This document shows positions 3,454-55,906 of a DNA stretch of 64,000 nt, piece by piece (position 1 is the first letter of the stretch; each line of letters begins with the position of its first letter). A model generated the notes under the pieces. That model made no database searches and was not told where the DNA came from. It worked only from the letters and a program-made list of their open reading frames with translations. A program made the translations under genes and the position numbers. This DNA is from a virus: IMG/VR virus record IMGVR_UViG_3300037141_000236, positions 1 through 64,000 of that record; one strand, written 5' to 3'.

Positions 3454-5217
3454 ATGAAAAATTTAAAAGAAAATACAAAGTCTTACGAACTTGGTCGTCT
3501 TCTTGAACGTTCAGAAATGGCAAAACGCCAAACGATCGTTGAAGCATGGAAAGGTTCAGGGTACCTATACGGTCTTAAAGGTCGTGATCTAGGTAACATG
3601 GCTACTTTGGCAGAAAACCAAAAGCGTCAGATCCTAAGGGAAAACAATACAACAGCTGATATGGCAGTGTTTGATACTATCGCTATTCCGATGATTCGTC
3701 GTCAGAACGCTTTGATGGTTTCTCCTAACCTTATTTCTGTTCAACCATTGTCATACCCTAACGGTATCGCATTCTTCCTTGACTATAAAGTATCTAATAC
3801 TAAAAAGCCTATCGCTTCTACGTATTTGAGAAATGGTCTTCCAGTTGCAACTTCTCCTACAGCAGTGGGTGGTGGTCAAGTAGCTGATGACTTCTCAGGA
3901 AACACTTTCGAATCTACATCAGGTTACGATCGTCACTACAACAACCAAGGATATGACAACTCAAAAGGTCGTGTAATTGCACGTGGTTGGAATCCTGCAA
4001 CAAGTAACTTCAATAACACTTCAATCGGTGGTGTTGACGATACAGCTAACGCAGCTTCTTTCTCTACAGCAGTAGTTAACATGGGTGGAGCAGGTGTAAT
4101 TAATATTAACGTTGTTGATTTCGACTTGACAGCAATTGGTGGTATCACTATGGATCAAGCAGCTTCAATCGCTGTTTACGATGCAACAGGAGTACTTTTA
4201 CAAGGTCGTGATTACTTCGTTCAACGTGTAATCCAAAACTACACTGACTTTATCATGTCAACAGGACGTACAGGTGGAGGTTTAACAGATACAGAAGCAG
4301 GACCAGCATCAACTGGAAATGGAATTTCTGGACCTGGTCAAGCTAACAAAGTATTAAGACTTAGAATCATCCCAACAGTAGACGGTCTAGGAGCTGTTAA
4401 CTTGAGACTTTCTTTCTCTCAATATTTGAACTTGGAACTTTACCCAGCGTTCTCATCTGAATTGAAACTTGAAATTAAATCAGTTCCAATCCAAACACAA
4501 ATTCACAAGATGAAAACAGCTTGGACTGTAGAATTAGCACAAGATTTGATGGCATACCATGCTATTGACGCTGAAGCTGAATTGACACAGTTACTTGCTG
4601 AAGAAGTAGCGGCTGAAAAAGACCGTCTTATCATCCGTGAGTTAATTAACCTTGCAGGTCACTTCGAAGTATGGAACGCTGACTTTGCAAATTCAATCGA
4701 CCCTAACCCAGCAAACACAGTATTCCGTGGAACTGAATCAACTTACAACCAGACTTTATTGCTTGCAGTAAACAGAGCTGATGGTAAGATCCGTAAGTCT
4801 ACGAAAAGAGGTGGTGCTAACTGGATGTTGATCTCTTCAGAAGGAGCAGCTAAGTTGGTAAACCTTGATACTTTCAAACCTTCAGACTTAAACGAAGAAG
4901 GAACGAAGTTCGCAGCAGGTGTAGAAAGAATCGGAACAGTTAACCAAAAATACACTGTGTATGTAGATCCACACCTTCCAGCCGAAGTTTGTTTACTAGG
5001 TCGTAAAGGTACAAGTTTCTTCGATACAGGATATGTATACTGTCCTTACATTGAATATATGTTGTCTCCAGTTGTTCTTGAACAACAAGACTTCAACCCA
5101 AGACGTCAAATCGCGTCTCGTTTCGGAACACAAATGTTGAACAACAAGTTCTACGCTGTGGTTTGGATGAAGGGTATCGAACAATTTACGGTGTTTCAGG
5201 ATAGCACTACAAACTAA
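3454..5217 (+). CDS. Major capsid protein, T4 gp23-like
   Basis: Forms the hexamers of the phage head. The 587-residue product shows the gp23-type layout: a basic N-terminus, PMIRRQNALM followed by a VQPLSYPNG segment, a DAEAELTQLLAEEVAAEKDR helix, and a C-terminal YVDPHLP...GYVYCPYIEY core with PRRQIASRFG. One site, I28-V29-E30|A31, fits the prohead-protease rule and may be the maturation cut; this is inference. It lies downstream of protease and scaffold genes, with its own late-type promoter and a strong terminator. Confidence 0.92.
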   Translation: MKNLKENTKSYELGRLLERSEMAKRQTIVEAWKGSGYLYGLKGRDLGNMATLAENQKRQILRENNTTADMAVFDTIAIPMIRRQNALMVSPNLISVQPLSYPNGIAFFLDYKVSNTKKPIASTYLRNGLPVATSPTAVGGGQVADDFSGNTFESTSGYDRHYNNQGYDNSKGRVIARGWNPATSNFNNTSIGGVDDTANAASFSTAVVNMGGAGVININVVDFDLTAIGGITMDQAASIAVYDATGVLLQGRDYFVQRVIQNYTDFIMSTGRTGGGLTDTEAGPASTGNGISGPGQANKVLRLRIIPTVDGLGAVNLRLSFSQYLNLELYPAFSSELKLEIKSVPIQTQIHKMKTAWTVELAQDLMAYHAIDAEAELTQLLAEEVAAEKDRLIIRELINLAGHFEVWNADFANSIDPNPANTVFRGTESTYNQTLLLAVNRADGKIRKSTKRGGANWMLISSEGAAKLVNLDTFKPSDLNEEGTKFAAGVERIGTVNQKYTVYVDPHLPAEVCLLGRKGTSFFDTGYVYCPYIEYMLSPVVLEQQDFNPRRQIASRFGTQMLNNKFYAVVWMKGIEQFTVFQDSTTN

Positions 5218-10586: not shown

Positions 10587-13187
10587 TTAATATTTGTTTT
10601 GTTTAAGCTTATTGTAAATTTCTTTAATCATACTCTCTTTTCCAAAGCTATCTATTTCTTTACCTTCGATGGCCTGGTCGATATTATACATCTTCACCTT
10701 CAAGGCTTCGAACATTATACTATCAATTGAGTTATCATATATAGGATACCAAATATTAACCAATTCAGTTTGACCTATTCTATATAACCTATCTTCAGCT
10801 TGACGCATTACTGCAGGACTCCAAGATAAGTCATTCATTATAGCCACAGTTGCTCTTGTCAATGTTAATCCAAATGAAGCAATTGCCAGATTACAAACTA
10901 ATACAGAAGGACCTTTCACGGATTGAAATAAGTCAACACGTCTTTGTCTTTCATGAATATCTAATCGACAATCTAAAGTAAGACATTCAGCTCCAAATTC
11001 TTTTTGGAATGTATCAATGACATCAATATAGTTTGTAAAGATAACGACCTTCTTGTTTTGTTCTAAAGCATTCCTTACTAATTCAGCAGTAGAACCATCT
11101 TTAGCTTTCTGTAAGGCTGTAAATTTCCTTAATACAGCAAGTTCAACAAATGCTTCTCCAAATTCAGATAGTTGTTTACCATAGTCTTCAGCAAGAGGAT
11201 CTAAACTGTCTTCGTATTTCTTCTCGTAATAGATTTCAACAGCACATTCATATTCTTTAAGTGTTCTTGCATCTAACTCCAAATACATTGGGGTTCTTAC
11301 TTTTGGAGGCAAGTCTAACACTTCTTCCTTTTTCCTCCTTAGAATAATGTTTTGTGTCTTATAATGTAATTCTTTAAGGTTAGAGGCTCCATTGTAATCA
11401 TAACCCCATTGAGTAAGTTGTCCTCCGCAGTTTTTAGAACAAAACCCATAAGCAATATAATTTCCTAAAGAAGTAGTTAAAGTATATACGGTGTGTATTC
11501 CTTTTAAGGGGATAATTTTTATAATTTTAGGTTTATCTGAAAGAAATGTATGGTTTGCCTTAGTGATAAAACTCCACAATTTCCTGGTTAATGCAGGTTT
11601 ACATAAATCAAAAAACCGCAAAGTTTCTTTTTTTGTACCTAGAATTCTTATTATTTCAATGGGATTTCTAAATTTAGATATTTGTGTTCTTATAGAATAT
11701 TCAAATCCTAAAAACTTAATACCTTTACAAATTAAATTTGTTGTTTCTGTATTAATTATTTTACTTTGCGAGAATGTATCATTACAACCTTCGGCGTCAT
11801 AAATCCCTGCCATAAATCCCCGCCAACCATCAATGTTTTGCGCAAATGGACGTGTGAAGAAACCCCAAGATTCGTTAATATCATTATGTGATAAGTTAAT
11901 AATTGAATTTCTTTTGTTTATATTTATGTGATATGTAAACTTAAAATAATCTAAGTATTTTTTTATTCTTTCTATTATTTCTTGATCATTTGATGCAAAA
12001 CTAATTTGTTGCCGCACCAAAATTGCTTTGGATGTGTTTATTGTTTTGTGCGGATATTCTTTATATTCATATTTCCTGCTCATATGCCCATCACCCCTGA
12101 TTGCACCAGATAAATAACCGAACATATAATCCTCAGTTTCTTCTAAAGAAAACTGTGTTGCATAAACATAAGAAAGGGGATTTCCTATCATGGGTGTTTC
12201 ATAAGTATTTGTCTTATGGTTTAACCATCTATGATCTGGTGTACATATTATTTCTGTTTTGTCTGATAAAATAATTTTTTGTAGAGAAGATTGTTTTTGC
12301 ATAGTACCTAAAACCTCTGCTATGGCTAATTCATTGTTAAATCCGATACCATCTTTTTTAAACCAACCAACTACACGATCTCCTGTTTTTACGTTTTTTA
12401 TTAATTTCTCCGACAAATCACTCATTAAAATCGGAGCTTCTCCAGGCAAACAATATTGCTGGCCAAATACTTGTTTGTTCTTTCCTAAATCGTGTTTACA
12501 AACTTTCAATAGATTATAGAAGTCGATTGGCTTATTAGCAATTGGAGTTCCAGTTAATAACCAAACTCTTTTAGATTTATTAGCTATCTTACCGAAAGCT
12601 TTACTTCTTTGGCTTTGCATATTTTTAATCATATGCGCCTCATCAGCAATAACTAGTTCAAACTTCTCTTTAATAATCTTCTCTTGGAATTTCTTAAGTA
12701 CATCGTAATTGACAATCGTGAAACGTCTAGGCTCCCATGTCTTATTAATGACAGCTACATCAGAACAGAATGGAATAATTTCTTTTGCCCAATTTAGTTT
12801 AAGAGAAGCAGGGCATACAATAAGTATTCTACTTGCGTTCAATTCTAAAGCAGCTACGATTGCTTGTAATGATTTACCCAAACCCATATCATCTCCAAGG
12901 ATAGCTTTATCTTTATTCAAAAGCCAATTGATTCCCAATCTTTGAAATGGATAAGGAGCTCTGAAGTTATATCTATCCCAATCAATCTTAAACTCTTTGA
13001 TCTTATCTTGAACGATTGTCTTATCATCAGTTTTGATGGCATGAGTCATTAAGAACTTCTTTCCCAAAGTAATTTGAGTGAAAGAAAGCTCTTCGCCTTT
13101 AATAACAAGCTCTTGTAAGGACTTAAGATAAACATTATCTCCAGTGTAATCTTTTAATCTTGTACAAAGTTCTTTATAGTTTGTCAT
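10587..13187 (-). CDS. SNF2-type DNA helicase interrupted by an intein
   Basis: Superfamily 2 ATPase of the SNF2/SMARCAL1-like type, presumed to translocate on DNA in replication, repair or transcription. The 866-residue precursor has Walker A DDMGLGKS (about 99-106), DEAH at 182-185, motif III LLTGTP (210-215) and the C-terminal motif WSPAVMRQAEDRLYRIGQ. A 341-residue intein (246-586) sits between QQY and CGGQ, leaving a helicase of about 525 residues after splicing. The start overlaps the macrodomain stop (ATGA). Confidence 0.92.
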   Translation of the reverse strand: MTNYKELCTRLKDYTGDNVYLKSLQELVIKGEELSFTQITLGKKFLMTHAIKTDDKTIVQDKIKEFKIDWDRYNFRAPYPFQRLGINWLLNKDKAILGDDMGLGKSLQAIVAALELNASRILIVCPASLKLNWAKEIIPFCSDVAVINKTWEPRRFTIVNYDVLKKFQEKIIKEKFELVIADEAHMIKNMQSQRSKAFGKIANKSKRVWLLTGTPIANKPIDFYNLLKVCKHDLGKNKQVFGQQYCLPGEAPILMSDLSEKLIKNVKTGDRVVGWFKKDGIGFNNELAIAEVLGTMQKQSSLQKIILSDKTEIICTPDHRWLNHKTNTYETPMIGNPLSYVYATQFSLEETEDYMFGYLSGAIRGDGHMSRKYEYKEYPHKTINTSKAILVRQQISFASNDQEIIERIKKYLDYFKFTYHININKRNSIINLSHNDINESWGFFTRPFAQNIDGWRGFMAGIYDAEGCNDTFSQSKIINTETTNLICKGIKFLGFEYSIRTQISKFRNPIEIIRILGTKKETLRFFDLCKPALTRKLWSFITKANHTFLSDKPKIIKIIPLKGIHTVYTLTTSLGNYIAYGFCSKNCGGQLTQWGYDYNGASNLKELHYKTQNIILRRKKEEVLDLPPKVRTPMYLELDARTLKEYECAVEIYYEKKYEDSLDPLAEDYGKQLSEFGEAFVELAVLRKFTALQKAKDGSTAELVRNALEQNKKVVIFTNYIDVIDTFQKEFGAECLTLDCRLDIHERQRRVDLFQSVKGPSVLVCNLAIASFGLTLTRATVAIMNDLSWSPAVMRQAEDRLYRIGQTELVNIWYPIYDNSIDSIMFEALKVKMYNIDQAIEGKEIDSFGKESMIKEIYNKLKQNKY
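11430..12452 (-). mobile_element. Intein with LAGLIDADG-type homing endonuclease
   Basis: Residues 246-586 of the helicase precursor. It begins CLPGEAPILMSDLSEKLIKN (Hint block A, Cys1), has TPDHRW (block B, TxxH), two LAGLIDADG-like helices (YLSGAIRGDGHM and FMAGIYDAEGCN), and ends YTLTTSLGNYIAYGFCSKN followed by Cys+1. The penultimate residue is Lys rather than the usual His. Insertion is downstream of motif III in the helicase core. Confidence 0.9.
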
Positions 13188-13880: not shown

Positions 13881-14795
13881 ATGAAACACATTCTATTGAT
13901 CTTATTCGCTTTTATAGGTTTAAACATGTTTGCACAGACTTGTAAAAATTACTATATTCCCGATTCTTTAATACATAAAGGTAAAGCTATGATCCCTAAC
14001 ATCTTGGGTGGCACGTGCTCAAGCCCTGATGGGGTTGTTATGCAAATCCTTGCAGCTCCTGGAAGTTATAACGACTTATTTGATGGAGGATATTGTTATG
14101 CAATCGGCCCCACGAAGAATTTCACCATGTGTTTTACATTTACAGCCCCGGGACCAGACATAGATATCAATTCAGGTTATGAATCTTCCGGATGTAATTC
14201 AACAAACTTTAACTCAATTGATTTATATACTTGTGATCCAGCATGTACTTTCGTAGGCTCAGGTACAAGCTTTGTGGGTTTAACCACAGGCCAGTGTTAT
14301 ACCTGGTGTTTAACAGGGCATTGTGGAGGACCAGGACCAGGCTTCGATGAAGTATGTCCGTATTTCATAGATCAAACACCATTACCCATCACATTACTTT
14401 ATTTTAAAGGGTATTACAAAGATAAACTTATATATCTTGCTTGGGCTTCAGCAACTGAAACAAATAACAATTATTATAGCCTTGATAGAAGTATAGATGG
14501 TTTAATATGGACTCACTTGTTAAATATTACCGGTGAAGGAACAACAACTGAAACACAATATTATAGAGCAATTGATTCAAACCCTGTGATAGGCACTGAT
14601 TATTATAGATTAACACAAGTAGACTTCAACGGAACATCCGTTTCTTATACACCAATCGCGGTTAATGTACCATACTTCCAAAAAAAAATAATTAAGATCA
14701 CAAATGAGCTTGGACAAGAGATTACTTCAACCACCAAAGGCTTTTTCGTTATCTTTTATGATAACGGTACCATATCCAAAGGGTACAAATATTAA
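13881..14795 (+). CDS. Secreted Bacteroidetes-type cargo protein with T9SS-like C-terminal domain
   Basis: A 304-residue protein with a clear signal peptide (MKHILLILFAFIGLNMFAQ), a Cys/Gly-rich N-terminal domain, and a C-terminal part typical of Bacteroidetes type IX secretion substrates: LPITLLYFKGYY, LAWASATETNNNYYSLDRS, DYYRLTQVDFNG, ending ITNELGQEI...GFFVIFYDNG...KGYKY. By family this directs export and surface attachment in the host. No phage family with this architecture is known to me. It sits between phage accessory and neck genes, so it looks like captured cargo that may alter the host surface. Confidence 0.8.
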   Translation: MKHILLILFAFIGLNMFAQTCKNYYIPDSLIHKGKAMIPNILGGTCSSPDGVVMQILAAPGSYNDLFDGGYCYAIGPTKNFTMCFTFTAPGPDIDINSGYESSGCNSTNFNSIDLYTCDPACTFVGSGTSFVGLTTGQCYTWCLTGHCGGPGPGFDEVCPYFIDQTPLPITLLYFKGYYKDKLIYLAWASATETNNNYYSLDRSIDGLIWTHLLNITGEGTTTETQYYRAIDSNPVIGTDYYRLTQVDFNGTSVSYTPIAVNVPYFQKKIIKITNELGQEITSTTKGFFVIFYDNGTISKGYKY

Positions 14796-14852: not shown

Positions 14853-15620
14853 ATGCTATTGGATATGAGTGACGATGAAATTATCATTTATAAAACGACA
14901 AATCTTATTACTGGTAAAATTTATGTTGGAAAACATACTACTGGTAAGAAAAACTATCTGGGTTCGGGTAAGTGGCTTAAACGTTCTGTAAAGAAATATG
15001 GAAGACATAATTTTAAAAGAGAAGTGTTAGAAACTTGTACTTCGCTGGAAGAATTAGATATTCGGGAAATTTATTGGATAGCACAATTAGACGCTAGAAA
15101 CCCCAAAATAGGTTATAATTTGAATAAAGGTGGTCTAGGAAATAGTAGTGAAGATGTGTCAGGAAGAAAAAACCCTATGTACAATAAAAAGCATAAAGAA
15201 AGTTCTAAAAAATTAATGTCTTTAAAACGTATAGGAAAATCTAATATTATAAAGGGCAAAACTTGGGATGAAGTATATGGTTTTGAAAAGGCCAATAAAA
15301 TAAGAAAAAAATGCAGTAAGAAAAGAATAGGCGTTTCTCTAAACTTATCTCCTGAAGCATTAGTTTTAAAAAAGATACAGGGCGAGATTTTAGGCAAAAG
15401 AATCAGAACTCTTAAAGAAAGAGAATTTCTTTCTAAATTAAAGACAAAGTATCAAGTAGAACAAATAGATATTTTAACAGGTAATATCATTTACGTCTGG
15501 CCAAGCGCGAATGAAATAGCGAAACAATTAAAGATTTCTTCACGCGCTATAAGACGTTGTTGCATAGGTAAAGCACATACTACTTACAATTATAAATGGC
15601 GATATAAAATTATAGATTAA
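14853..15620 (+). CDS. GIY-YIG homing endonuclease fused to a copy of the neck-gene start
   Basis: A 255-residue enzyme. GIY-YIG nuclease: IIIYKTTNLITGKIYVGKHT, YLGSGKWLKRSVKKYGRHNF, REIYWIAQLD, GYNLNKGG; then a NUMOD3-like NPMYNKKHKES, a GKTWDEVYGFEKA module also seen in the gene at 51449, and a C-terminal helix-turn-helix (SANEIAKQLKISSRAIRRCC). The first ten residues (MLLDMSDDEI) nearly repeat the start of the next gene (MLLDMTQGEL) with different codons, so it appears to have inserted at the 5' end of the neck gene. Confidence 0.9.
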   Translation: MLLDMSDDEIIIYKTTNLITGKIYVGKHTTGKKNYLGSGKWLKRSVKKYGRHNFKREVLETCTSLEELDIREIYWIAQLDARNPKIGYNLNKGGLGNSSEDVSGRKNPMYNKKHKESSKKLMSLKRIGKSNIIKGKTWDEVYGFEKANKIRKKCSKKRIGVSLNLSPEALVLKKIQGEILGKRIRTLKEREFLSKLKTKYQVEQIDILTGNIIYVWPSANEIAKQLKISSRAIRRCCIGKAHTTYNYKWRYKIID

Positions 15621-16732
15621 TGTTGTTAGATATGACGCAAGGAGAATTAAGCGAATTGTTGGAGCTGGTACAAACTTTATTGGGTGGAGAAGACGTTGAC
15701 GTTGATATCACCGAAAAAGAAATCAGAATTCTGGCTCGAAGAGCATTAAAAGACTATCTTTATGAAATTGCGCAATGGACAATTAGAAATCAATTCTCCA
15801 ATGTGGTAGGATCATCATCTACAATAGACTTTACTAATAAGTTTGTTATGGATAATGAAATGATCGCTCAGCGTATTTCTGACTGGTTTGCATCCATGCA
15901 AAGAGTTGGTGGTAAAATCCCTTGGAAAAAAGATTATATTGTTTTAGAATCTCTAAGACAAGTATATGACCTATCAACAGAATCATCTGTTCCTTATATT
16001 GCAGGTACTCGTAGAATACACAGAGTAATGTGGTATGGAGCTCCAGAGGTATTTGGTTCAGCCACAGTTGCAGGAGACTTAACAAACACAAACTTATTCT
16101 CTTTCGGTCAATCCGGATTATCTTATGGTAATTCTCCTTTGATGATGTTGGGTAATTTATTCGACGTTATCTTATTAGCTCAAGCTTTAGAATCTAGAAA
16201 CAAAGTATTAAGAAGTGAATTCTTTTATAATCTTTCTGGAGATATGTTAGAAGTAACGCCTACACCTGGAAGACCTTCTGCAGGGAGTTTCCAATCTGGC
16301 GCAAGAGTTTACTATTATTACTTTGATGAATCCGATCCATCCTTCTTAGGTCTTACGACACAAGATGCAACAAATACATTAATTGCTAATCCCACTCAAG
16401 TTAAAATTACAAATCTTCCATATTCTAATATGAATGATATGTCAAAGAGTTGGATTGACAATTATACATTAGCACTAGCTAAATACACACAAGCAGCTAA
16501 ATGGAGAAGAGTAAGAACAATTGCTTCTCCCAATTCAGAATATCAAGTTGAGTTTGACTATGCGTCTTTAATAGATGAATCAAAAGCACAGATAGAAGAC
16601 TTGAGACAAAGACTACAAGATGATCTATTGAAATATCTTGATAGTTTCACCATGATGGAAAACAAAGCAACTCTCACAGAGAATGCTGCGAAGATTAACA
16701 AATACAGTCCTAGAAAATTTTTTATAGGCTAG
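15620..16732 (+). CDS. Neck protein, T4 gp13-like
   Basis: A 370-residue protein. The C-terminal half (KSWIDNYTLALAKYTQAAKW, followed by IASPNSEYQVEFDYASLIDE and a long helix) matches the pattern of gp13-type head-completion proteins. It opens the neck-tail run gp13-gp14-gp15-gp18-gp19. It starts in a TAATG overlap with the upstream homing endonuclease, whose first codons mirror its own, so its translation now depends on coupling or on a restored start. Confidence 0.75.
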   Translation: MLLDMTQGELSELLELVQTLLGGEDVDVDITEKEIRILARRALKDYLYEIAQWTIRNQFSNVVGSSSTIDFTNKFVMDNEMIAQRISDWFASMQRVGGKIPWKKDYIVLESLRQVYDLSTESSVPYIAGTRRIHRVMWYGAPEVFGSATVAGDLTNTNLFSFGQSGLSYGNSPLMMLGNLFDVILLAQALESRNKVLRSEFFYNLSGDMLEVTPTPGRPSAGSFQSGARVYYYYFDESDPSFLGLTTQDATNTLIANPTQVKITNLPYSNMNDMSKSWIDNYTLALAKYTQAAKWRRVRTIASPNSEYQVEFDYASLIDESKAQIEDLRQRLQDDLLKYLDSFTMMENKATLTENAAKINKYSPRKFFIG

Positions 16733-16776: not shown

Positions 16777-17649
16777 ATGGAAATGAAAACAACATTTATT
16801 TACGCATTAATTGATCCTAGAACTAAACAACCAAAGTACATAGGAAAAGCTAATAAACCAGAAAAACGCTTATACGAACATTTAAGGTGTAAAGGTTGTA
16901 ATAAAAAAACAAATTGGATAAAGAAATTAAAATCTTTAGAGCTAAAACCAACATTGGAAATACTTGATGAAATTCCATTTAGTGAATGGGAATTTTGGGA
17001 AATGCATTATATTAGTTTGTATAAATCTTGGGGATTCAATTTAGTGAATGGAACAAAAGGTGGAGAAGGTGCAGATGAAATTATGGCTATGAAAATAGCA
17101 CAATCTTTAAAAGGTCATAAACAAAGTCAATCTAGCATTAATAAGAGATTAGCGAGTCGCCGAAAACGACAAGAGAAAACAGGATCTTGGTCAAAACCGG
17201 GCACATATGAAAAGATAAAAGCTGTAAGAGAAAAGAATAATAGTTATAAATCTATTTGGACGTCTGAATTAAAAGCGAAGCAATCTAATAGTATTAAAGA
17301 AGCTTATAAAAAAGGCACTAAAGTATTAAGTGGAGGAGTATTAACACCTAAATTAGGAAAACTAAATGGTGTATCGCGTTCCGTTGTACAATATGATTTA
17401 AGAGGCAATAAGATTAGAGAATGGGAAAGCGCAAAACAAGCAGGAGAAAGTTTAGGGTTATTTGGTAGAGGTTGTGGAAGTGCCATTATCTCATGTTGTA
17501 AATTAAAAGGATTATCGTCAAAAGGATTTATCTGGTTATATAAAGAATCAGAAGTAACACCACGAGAGGTGATAAAGAAAATAGAAGAACGTAAAGAATT
17601 TGTGAAACAAAATATGAGAGCGAAACAAAGTTTAAGGTGGAATGCATAA
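16777..17649 (+). CDS. GIY-YIG homing endonuclease
   Basis: A 290-residue enzyme. The N-terminal nuclease has FIYALIDPRTKQPKYIGKA, KRLYEHLRC, WEFWEMHYISLYKSWGFNLV and NGTKGGEG. A basic NUMOD3-type region follows (SLKGHKQSQSSINKRLASRR), and the C-terminus is a NUMOD1-type unit (VVQYDLRGNKIREWESAKQA). It lies between neck genes and overlaps the next gene by 8 nt. Confidence 0.9.
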   Translation: MEMKTTFIYALIDPRTKQPKYIGKANKPEKRLYEHLRCKGCNKKTNWIKKLKSLELKPTLEILDEIPFSEWEFWEMHYISLYKSWGFNLVNGTKGGEGADEIMAMKIAQSLKGHKQSQSSINKRLASRRKRQEKTGSWSKPGTYEKIKAVREKNNSYKSIWTSELKAKQSNSIKEAYKKGTKVLSGGVLTPKLGKLNGVSRSVVQYDLRGNKIREWESAKQAGESLGLFGRGCGSAIISCCKLKGLSSKGFIWLYKESEVTPREVIKKIEERKEFVKQNMRAKQSLRWNA

Positions 17650-44307: not shown

Positions 44308-45024
44308 ATGAGAGAATCATATTGTGTTTATTTTCACATTAACCCTATTAAACAAGAAGTATTTTATGTAGGTATTGGAAATTCCAAAAGACCTTACAAA
44401 AAACAAGGTCGTTCTAAATTATGGGTAAACACTGTGAATAAGTATAGTCATGATATTATCATTATTCATAAAAATCTTTCTTGGTCCGAAGCAAGTCAGT
44501 TGGAAATACAATATATTAAACAAATAGGTCGTAAAGATTTAGGTAAAGGTTCTTTAGTAAACCTATCCTCAGGTGGTGAAGGTGCTATTGGTGTTAAGCG
44601 TTCTGACGAACAAAAACAAAAAATTCGTTTAAAACTAACAGGATATAAACACTCTAAAGAAGCATGTGAAAACATGGGCAAGTCTCGCTTAGGTAAACTG
44701 CGTCCGCACAAAGAAGAAACAAAACGTAAAATAGGTTTAGCTCATGTAGGAAAGAAACTTACTCAAGAACATAAAGATAATATTCGAACTGCTCGAACCG
44801 GTTGGGTTTATTCAGAAGAATCAAAACAAAAGATAAGCCAATCTAAAATGGGTCACACTACGTCTTTCGAAGCTAAAGCCAAAATGCGCGCAGCAAAGTT
44901 GGGTATTAAGAATGGCCCACATTCAGAAGAAACTAAACGAAAAATGTCATTAGCCAAAATAGAAGGCTATAAAAGAAGAAAACTTTTAAAGGAATTAACA
45001 GAACAGAAGGTCACATTTGCTTAA
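44308..45024 (+). CDS. GIY-YIG homing endonuclease with NUMOD3 repeats
   Basis: A 238-residue enzyme: CVYFHINPIKQEVFYVGIGN, RPYKKQGRSKLW, EASQLEIQYIKQIGR, NLSSGGEG, then about five NUMOD3 units of the pattern SEEtKrKisxAkxGx (for example HKEETKRKIGLAHVGKKLT). Starts immediately after the previous stop codon. Confidence 0.9.
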   Translation: MRESYCVYFHINPIKQEVFYVGIGNSKRPYKKQGRSKLWVNTVNKYSHDIIIIHKNLSWSEASQLEIQYIKQIGRKDLGKGSLVNLSSGGEGAIGVKRSDEQKQKIRLKLTGYKHSKEACENMGKSRLGKLRPHKEETKRKIGLAHVGKKLTQEHKDNIRTARTGWVYSEESKQKISQSKMGHTTSFEAKAKMRAAKLGIKNGPHSEETKRKMSLAKIEGYKRRKLLKELTEQKVTFA

Positions 45025-55042: not shown

Positions 55043-55906
55043 ATGAAACAGATAAGAGTGGGATCGGATACGATCATCAGCAGGGATATAAACCTGGAAC
55101 GCTATTTAAAAGACATTCGAAAGATGCCTACAATGAATTACACTGAAGAAAGGTTAGTAATCATCGAAGCACAGAAAGGAGACCAAGCCGCTTTCGAAAA
55201 ACTTATTACTGCCAACTTACGATTCGTTGTAAGCTGTGCAAAGGAATATCAATATCCAGGAATTGAGATCATCGATCTTATTCAGGCTGGCAATGTTGGA
55301 CTTATGGAAGCGATAACCAAATTCGATCTTACCAAAGAAATCAAATTTATCTCTTATGCAGTATGGTGGATTAAAAACTCCATCATTGAATTTTTAAGAG
55401 AGAATACAAAGGCAATTCGTTTACCTTACAACCAACAAAACGAAATCCAACGTTATTTCAAAGAGAAGGATAAATTAGAGAAACAATATGAGACGACTCT
55501 CAACGCCGATCAGGTGGGGCAGTTGACTGATACTGATATCGATGTTGATTATATCCGTCAAGCTCTGTTGTGTAATTCACATGCACAATCAATGAATGAC
55601 CCAATTGGAGGAGGAGATGGTGGAGAAATTGGTATTGTTGAAGACCTAATTTCAGATCCTCACGCTAACTTTCTTGACGGCTATGATCACGCTTTCAGGA
55701 GACAGCAAGTGAGTCGTGCGTTAGGAAAGCTTTCACCAATACAAAAACAAATCATCGTCCTTTCCTTTGGGTTGGAAGATTCAATCAGTCGTTCAAACGA
55801 AGACATTGCAGAACAATTAAAACTAACTGCAGAAAGAATCCGACAAATCAAAAACCAAGCTGTTGCTAAACTTGGTACCCTTGATTACCTTTCCATTTGT
55901 AGGTAA
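55043..55906 (+). CDS. RpoD-like sigma-70 factor
   Basis: A 287-residue sigma factor with regions 1.2 (INLERYLKDIRKMPTMNYTE), 2 (NLRFVVSCAKEYQYPGIEII, KFISYAVWWIKNSIIEFLRE), 3 and 4 (LSPIQKQIIVLSFGLEDSIS, then EDIAEQLKLTAERIRQIKNQ). It would bind host core polymerase and read host-like promoters; the start at 55043 is chosen. The host-type promoter in front suggests early expression and possible autoregulation. Full-length group 2-type sigma factors are uncommon in T4-like phages. Confidence 0.92.
   Translation: MKQIRVGSDTIISRDINLERYLKDIRKMPTMNYTEERLVIIEAQKGDQAAFEKLITANLRFVVSCAKEYQYPGIEIIDLIQAGNVGLMEAITKFDLTKEIKFISYAVWWIKNSIIEFLRENTKAIRLPYNQQNEIQRYFKEKDKLEKQYETTLNADQVGQLTDTDIDVDYIRQALLCNSHAQSMNDPIGGGDGGEIGIVEDLISDPHANFLDGYDHAFRRQQVSRALGKLSPIQKQIIVLSFGLEDSISRSNEDIAEQLKLTAERIRQIKNQAVAKLGTLDYLSICR

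What the first reader, a model, noticed from the sequence alone, without database searches (positions are those of the whole stretch)
13881..14795. Phage-borne secreted protein with a type IX secretion-like C-terminal domain
A signal peptide plus a C-terminal domain in the style of Bacteroidetes T9SS type A substrates lies in the middle of phage accessory and neck genes. A phage using the host T9SS to display or export its own protein would be remarkable: it could change the surface to block superinfection, alter adhesion or gliding, or affect the host's surroundings.
Basis: partly seen in the sequence, partly recalled or inferred. Interest (0 to 1): 0.75.

Follow-up and report, generated by a model that had tools for sequence, protein, structure and literature searches.

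The report
Phage protein with shortened T9SS-like tail
A T4-like virus of Bacteroidota bacteria carries a gene for a secreted protein whose ending looks like a shortened version of the bacterial export tag for the type IX secretion system; the same short tag recurs in dozens of other phages and is missed by every standard annotation model, so phages may routinely use this bacterial exporter unnoticed.

Summary
The ORF (13881-14795, 304 aa) is real. It has a Bacteroidota-type signal peptide (MKHILLILFAFIGLNMFA|Q), a Cys-rich beta domain, a fibronectin-III-like module and a 40-aa tail. It lies in a T4-like myovirus. The tail still looks like a cut-down type A sorting domain: it keeps counterparts of motifs B (IIKITNELGQEI), D (GFFVIFY) and E (terminal Lys) and lacks strands 1-2 (PNP). 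As a profile it aligns to full CTDs far above shuffles, but with gaps; the window's tail alone is only weakly similar.

The tail is not peculiar to this gene. In a scan ranked on the FnIII module alone, 53 of 66 viral proteins end in the short tail, versus about 33 of 205 modules in the best-matching bacterial family. Some Flavobacteriales genomes carry 4-12 copies on different proteins. A close relative (capsid protein 84% identical) keeps the gene in place, but at only 38% identity.

Best reading: a phage surface protein exported by the host T9SS through a short, uncatalogued type A-like signal. Phage T9SS cargo has precedent (Cryophage, 2020); the short tag and conserved locus appear new. 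Export is inferred, not shown.

The parts
13881..14795 (+). complete CDS, 304 aa: signal peptide + Cys-rich beta domain + FnIII-like module + short T9SS-like tail
   Evidence: full-length homologues L183/L292, L288, L289, L050/L291, L293
13881..13934 (+). putative Sec signal peptide (aa 1-18), Gln at +1
   Evidence: sequence; enrichment of such N-termini in the family versus neighbouring ORFs
13935..14375 (+). N-terminal beta-rich domain with 11 Cys (aa 19-165), motif GSC/TC-SPDG ... YTWCLT ... CPYF
   Evidence: alignment A7; five other phage members; AF2 pLDDT about 75-90 for aa 80-160, under 55 for aa 15-60; no informative Pfam hit
14376..14672 (+). fibronectin-III-like module (LPITLLYF ... 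YYRLTQVDFNG), the module that precedes T9SS type A CTDs in bacterial relatives
   Evidence: hhalign P 6.7e-54 to the bacterial module; AF2 pLDDT over 90; Foldseek FnIII-like hits
14673..14792 (+). short C-terminal tail (aa 265-304), proposed shortened type A-like T9SS signal
   Evidence: alignment A6, 44-position model
14688..14723 (+). motif B / L-beta3-beta4-like stretch IIKITNELGQEI; Gly278 invariant in the family
   Evidence: aligns to bacterial CTD profile; importance of this motif in RgpB from PMC11285876
14739..14759 (+). motif D-like stretch GFFVIFY (GxYxV counterpart); Gly 98% conserved
   Evidence: column frequencies; colinear in the gapped hhalign alignment but not significant on its own
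14766..14792 (+). motif E-like end, conserved Lys300 (91% K, 7% R)
   Evidence: column frequencies; conserved CTD Lys contacts PorV in PMC10994853
13184..13813 (-). divergent 209-aa gene, same neighbour in relative L183 (42% identity)
10587..13187 (-). SNF2-type DNA helicase with intein-like insertion (aa about 247-581), same neighbour in L183 without the insertion
14853..15620 (+). homing endonuclease inserted between the gene and the neck gene (absent from L183)
   Evidence: phrog_314 2.3e-39; L183 layout
15620..16732 (+). putative neck / head-tail adaptor protein, 71% identical in L183
   Evidence: phrog_211 1.9e-5
3454..5217 (+). gp23-like major head protein; in about 20 distinct relatives it lies 1-3 kb upstream of the homologous gene
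   Evidence: phrog_138 3.6e-54

Best explanation
The gene encodes a phage cargo protein for the host's type IX secretion system. The N-terminal signal peptide sends it through Sec to the periplasm, where its Cys-rich domain can form disulfides. The C-terminal FnIII module plus a shortened type A-like CTD (motifs B, D and E kept; motif A and the first two strands lost) is then recognised by PorV/SprA and carries the protein across the outer membrane, to the cell surface or medium. The gene sits with head/neck genes and, in a close relative, behind a late-promoter-like motif, so it is probably made late. The most likely use is to occupy or alter the infected cell's surface (receptor masking or exclusion of competing or returning phage). 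Shown here: gene, signal-peptide-like N-terminus, module homology, recurrence and conservation of the short tail, conserved locus, fast divergence. Inferred: export, recognition by PorV/SprA, surface function (the last at about 0.25).
For: Module is the pre-CTD module of Bacteroidota; full-tail bacterial relatives score TIGR04183 in 53 of 54 cases, and their profile hits solved T9SS CTD structures such as 8glk, 8glj, mirolase and (weakly) gingipain. Short-tail profile vs bacterial CTD profile: score 19.7, P 3.6e-4, against 60 column shuffles with mean 8.8, sd 1.7, max 15.8; 39.5% of 152 short tails score over 6 bits on a CTD HMM vs 1.05% of shuffled and 0% of reversed tails. Bridging tails L233, L194, L107. 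Tail length is bimodal, none of 76-89 aa; virus 53 short / 13 long vs bacteria 12 / 81 (Fisher P 4e-18) and vs the best-matching bacterial family 33 of 205. The tag is multi-copy (4-12) on different 300-2100-aa proteins in six Flavobacteriales-type genomes that have SprA. Signal peptides enriched. Synteny with L183, gene 38% vs MCP 84% and neck 71% identical. Literature: last 22 residues of HBP35 CTD suffice (PMC5445135); L-beta3-beta4 and C-terminal motifs needed (PMC11285876); B, D, E modelled to contact PorV (PMC10202324); conserved Lys contacts PorV (PMC10994853).
Against: No curated T9SS model scores the tail. The window's own tail scores only 7.6 bits on the local CTD HMM and is not significant in a pairwise test against one solved CTD. 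The second half of the tail is not independently significant. AF2 gives a FnIII domain plus three short strands, not a seven-strand CTD, and Foldseek found no CTD match. SprA is present in 291 of 299 genomes of the order, so co-occurrence carries no information. Published work holds that the CTD fold matters, so half a fold may not be enough. Host not known.
Confidence: 0.6

Rival explanations
1. The protein is Sec-exported but stops in the periplasm or outer membrane; the short tail is only the structural end of the FnIII module (an extra beta-hairpin), a relic of a degraded CTD with no sorting role.
For: AF2 predicts the tail as short strands with high confidence next to the FnIII domain; no curated T9SS model scores it; some phage tails are shorter still and lack the terminal Lys region (L238, L213, L229).
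Against: Relics should decay, yet Gly278 is invariant, Asn275 96%, Gln279 91%, Gly287 98%, Gly296 95% and terminal Lys 91% across phages and bacteria. The tail sits at the extreme C-terminus of many different proteins, the mark of a sorting tag.
Confidence: 0.2
2. It is a virion decoration or fibre-like protein (as T4 Hoc, an Ig-type head protein): the FnIII module is displayed on the capsid or neck, and location next to MCP and neck genes reflects this.
For: Adjacent to head/neck genes in the window and L183, and within 1-3 kb of a gp23-like MCP in about 20 distinct relatives; FnIII-like structure with viral FnIII/tail matches.
Against: Signal-peptide-like N-terminus with the Bacteroidota Gln+1 site in most members versus few neighbouring ORFs; 11 Cys in the N-domain; closest cellular architecture is secreted T9SS cargo.
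Confidence: 0.15
3. A recently captured host gene of no use to the phage (or an assembly or binning artefact).
For: Module and tail are also common in Flavobacteriales.
Against: Syntenic full-length orthologue in L183 with MCP at 84%; six full-length members in different phages; intact ORF.
Confidence: 0.05

Closest known systems
T9SS type A cargo (TIGR04183 / PF18962, Por_Secre_tail)
   Same: Signal peptide; same pre-CTD FnIII-like module; colinear motifs B, D-like and E-like at the C-terminus
   Different: Tail about 40 aa instead of about 75-80; no PNP/motif A and strands 1-2; no score with the curated models
Cryophage T9SS-labelled cargo (PMC7468147)
   Same: Phage-encoded protein thought to use the host T9SS; variable gene
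   Different: Cryophage cargos (endoglucanase, GH39, PA14) carry recognised type A domains; here the tail is short and unrecognised, and the gene is at a conserved place in the head/neck region
crAss-like phage T9SS sorting-domain proteins near BACON genes (PMC6949934)
   Same: T9SS-type sorting domains on a phage genome, near head genes
   Different: Recognised full domains; different N-terminal domains; crAss-like rather than T4-like phage
T9SS type C CTD (NF033708, ChiA) and type B (TIGR04131)
   Same: Alternative, non-type-A T9SS signals
   Different: No profile hit in any short-tail member
T4 Hoc and other Ig-like phage head proteins
   Same: Ig/FnIII-like fold, gene near capsid genes
   Different: Signal peptide and Cys-rich secreted-type architecture here; relation recalled, not tested by sequence

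Membership tests
T9SS type A cargo (TIGR04183/PF18962) | N-terminal Sec signal peptide | tested here: met
   Sequence heuristic with neighbour control; no dedicated predictor run
T9SS type A cargo (TIGR04183/PF18962) | C-terminal domain scoring above the curated cut-off | tested here: not met
   positive control 53 of 54
T9SS type A cargo (TIGR04183/PF18962) | Motif A / PNP start and strands beta1-beta2 | tested here: not met
   Tail is 61-75 aa from YYRL versus a median of 106, no PNP-type motif
T9SS type A cargo (TIGR04183/PF18962) | Motifs B, D and E | tested here: inconclusive
   B aligns above all shuffles; D and E are colinear but not significant alone; family-wide HMM score well above shuffles
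T9SS type A cargo (TIGR04183/PF18962) | Export depends on SprA/PorV | not testable with these tools
   Needs a secretion assay
T9SS type A cargo (TIGR04183/PF18962) | Host encodes a T9SS | tested here: inconclusive
   Host unknown; bacteria with the same tail have SprA, but so does nearly the whole order
T9SS type C (NF033708) or type B (TIGR04131) cargo | Profile match | tested here: not met
Phage-borne T9SS cargo (Cryophage type) | Gene lies on a phage genome | tested here: met
   gp23-like MCP, prohead protease, sheath, baseplate, sigma factor in the window; synteny in L183
Phage-borne T9SS cargo (Cryophage type) | Recognised type A domain | tested here: not met
   no TIGR04183 anywhere in the record G000
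Hoc-like head decoration protein | No signal peptide (assembled in the cytoplasm) | tested here: not met
   Signal-peptide-like N-terminus
Hoc-like head decoration protein | Present on virions | not testable with these tools
   Needs virion proteomics

The most novel reading that the evidence does not exclude
Bacteroidota phages carry their own widespread class of secretion cargo marked by a minimal T9SS signal (motifs B, D and E only), a sorting-signal type not in TIGR04183, TIGR04131, NF033708 or Pfam, shared with a minority of Flavobacteriales proteins; phages use it late in infection to remodel the host surface through the T9SS.
Probability: 0.4. Interest if true: 0.82.

Novelty: new variant of a known kind. 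Interest (0 to 1): 0.6.

Why it matters
If right, a whole class of phage-encoded surface or secreted proteins in Bacteroidota phages has gone unannotated because the curated models need a full-length CTD. It would also give a natural minimal T9SS signal (about 40 residues), which bears directly on the open question of what SprA/PorV actually recognises, and a route by which phages could reshape the surface of gliding, polymer-degrading bacteria during infection.

Tried and rejected
Full-length TIGR04183 / PF18962 / NF033708 / TIGR04131 membership: rejected by profile. Pfam RelB hit to the N-domain (E 0.01-0.05, below cut-off): chance. PHROG: no family. PDB sequence search with the window protein or the viral profile: nothing for the tail, only a weak FnIII-type hit. 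Close-relative scan with the single protein found nothing. Structure: FnIII only; no CTD match. Pairwise test of the window tail against one solved CTD: not significant. SprA co-occurrence in the order: not informative, 291 of 299 positive. Cultured phages: among 50,697 records only four uncultured huge phages have the module; Flavobacterium phage immuto, which has the most similar cultured MCP with a Bacteroidota host, shows no annotated equivalent beside its MCP.

Full report
The thing itself. ORF 13881-14795 (+, 304 aa) is intact and single-copy in an 88,947-bp IMG/VR virus record. Reading from the N-terminus: a signal-peptide-like stretch MKHILLILFAFIGLNMFA|Q; a 147-aa region with 11 Cys; the segment LPITLLYF...YYRLTQVDFNG, predicted with high confidence as a fibronectin-III-like domain (AF2 pLDDT about 93); and a 40-residue tail, YFQKKIIKITNELGQEITSTTKGFFVIFYDNGTISKGYKY.

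Is there a T9SS domain? By curated models, no: NCBIfam, Pfam and PHROGs give nothing. With 58 other distinct viral short-tail proteins added (alignment A2), TIGR04183 hits 0 of 59 and PF18962 is not among the matches. The control works: 53 of 54 bacterial proteins with the same FnIII module but a full-length tail hit TIGR04183.

What the tail is. The FnIII module is the one that stands directly before type A CTDs in Bacteroidota (hhalign P 6.7e-54). The short tail replaces the CTD at that point. Its profile aligns to the bacterial CTD profile at the stretch 'IIKITNELGQEI' (score 19.7, P 3.6e-4; 60 column shuffles reach at most 15.8, mean 8.8, sd 1.7), and with cheap gaps the rest follows in order to the C-terminus, although the second half is not significant alone. 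On an HMM of bacterial CTDs, 39.5% of 152 related short tails exceed 6 bits, against 1.05% of composition-matched shuffles and none of the reversed tails; these tails are not independent. Intermediate tails exist, such as L233 (YDINGRYLG...GIFLIK...KKIIH), L194 (YDLTG...PGMYIQ...KKIIIQ) and L107/L098 (GVYL/GIYL). The conserved points are Asn275, Gly278 (invariant), Gln279, Gly287, Gly296 and Lys300. They match the places of motif B (loop beta3-beta4), motif D and motif E of type A CTDs. The literature says that the loop beta3-beta4 motif and the C-terminal motif are needed in P. gingivalis (PMC11285876), that the last 22 residues of one CTD suffice there (PMC5445135), that motifs B, D and E are modelled to touch PorV (PMC10202324), and that a conserved CTD lysine hydrogen-bonds PorV in the cryo-EM translocon (PMC10994853). 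Mapping these onto the short tail is my inference. For the window's own tail the evidence taken alone is weak: 7.6 bits, and a pairwise test against one solved CTD is not significant.

How widespread. A scan of viral contigs with the whole C-terminal region returned 214 relatives; of the best 80, 78 of 79 closed ORFs have the short tail. Because that ranking favours the query's own tail, I repeated the scan with an alignment of the FnIII module only, headed by a bacterial sequence: of 66 distinct closed viral ORFs, 53 are short (<=75 aa from YYRL to stop), 13 long (>=90) and none between. Bacterial loci give 12 short and 81 long (Fisher P 4e-18). Host lineage is a confounder, so I looked inside the bacterial family that contains tag-rich genomes: about 33 short tails among 205 modules in 21 genomes (two searches combined), and 5 of 29 in a direct reading of loci. 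The phage excess remains (Fisher P 2e-21 and 8e-9). In bacteria the tag is multi-copy (4-12 per genome) on otherwise different proteins of 300-2100 aa in six genomes, all with SprA; it occurs in 43 of 80 genomes of the family and 133 of 299 of the order. Only the query genome itself matched among 297 genomes drawn across the phylum; how that draw is spread over orders is not told, so I do not lean on it. SprA is in 291 of 299 genomes of the order, so co-occurrence proves nothing.

Phage context. The window holds a prohead protease (215-982), a gp23-like major head protein (3454-5217), neck, sheath, baseplate wedge and a sigma factor: a T4-like myovirus. Twenty of 42 virus records with the short tail also match the large-terminase family (several of these are weak, the window's own included), and 8 of 42 additionally encode a separate protein with a full TIGR04183 domain. 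About 20 distinct relatives have a gp23-like head protein 1-3 kb upstream on the same strand. L183, on a 19-kb contig, is a close relative with the same order helicase(-) / 209-aa gene(-) / this gene(+) / neck(+), without the window's homing endonuclease; its head protein is 84% identical, neck 71%, but this protein only 38%. The gene is thus a stable resident that diverges fast, as expected for something facing the host. Further contigs give full-length homologues including the N-domain, six members in all with the window. In L183 the gene has ATATTTAA 34 nt upstream, a motif found before structural genes of the window (17 on + versus 4 on -); the window gene lacks an exact copy.

Host. The nearest cultured head protein with a Bacteroidota host is that of Flavobacterium phage immuto (34%), and the huge phages LR745206, LR756502 and LR756504 that also carry the module match in size the 634-642-kb genomes predicted to replicate in Bacteroidetes (PMC7162821). 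With the Gln+1 signal peptides, a Flavobacteriales host is likely but not shown.

Mechanism offered. Sec export, disulfide formation in the periplasm, T9SS recognition of the short tail, display or release, probably late. Confidence about 0.6 for T9SS export; the surface role (receptor masking or exclusion) is a guess at about 0.25. The chief rival is a periplasmic or outer-membrane protein whose tail is only structural; the next is a virion decoration protein.

Novelty. Phage-borne T9SS cargo was already proposed for Cryophage (PMC7468147) and sorting domains were noted in crAss-like phages (PMC6949934). What I did not find in the libraries or papers searched is the short tag itself, its dominance in phage copies of this module, and the conserved head/neck locus.

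Limits. Signal peptides were called by a simple pattern, not a trained predictor. Collection scans keep the best 80 loci only. Viral contigs may be fragments. Metagenome sampling favours aquatic hosts.

Noticed in passing
window 10587-13187 (-): SNF2-type helicase carries an intein-like insertion (aa about 247-581) that is missing from the orthologous helicase in L183.
   Followed up: partly
window 14853-15620, 16777-17649, 44308-45024: Several homing-endonuclease-like genes (GIY-YIG type) interrupt the structural gene block; the one at 14853 is absent from the close relative L183. The one at 44308 is named from its sequence only.
   Followed up: partly
window 169, 1012, 3404, 16758, 19580, 22805, 23652, 24271, 25184, 25661, 42704 (+): ATATTTAA 13-50 nt upstream of structural and other late-type genes, 17 on the + strand against 4 on the - strand: a candidate late promoter of this T4-like phage, which also encodes a sigma factor (55043-55906).
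   Followed up: partly
virus records G001, G008, G013, G014, G019, G036, G038, G040: Besides the short-tail protein these phages encode separate proteins with a full-length TIGR04183 T9SS domain.
   Followed up: no
L089 (JAJFLM010000005.1): Contig filed under a Deltaproteobacteria MAG carries the Bacteroidota-type short-tail protein while the genome has no SprA: probably a misbinned or phage contig.
   Followed up: no
L213, L229, L238: Viral proteins with even shorter tails that stop soon after the motif-B-like stretch, so either the terminal motif is dispensable in some or these are decaying.
   Followed up: no
L002 4697-6375 (LR745206): The huge-phage relative is split over two frames (424 + 145 aa), by a frameshift or an assembly error.
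   Followed up: partly
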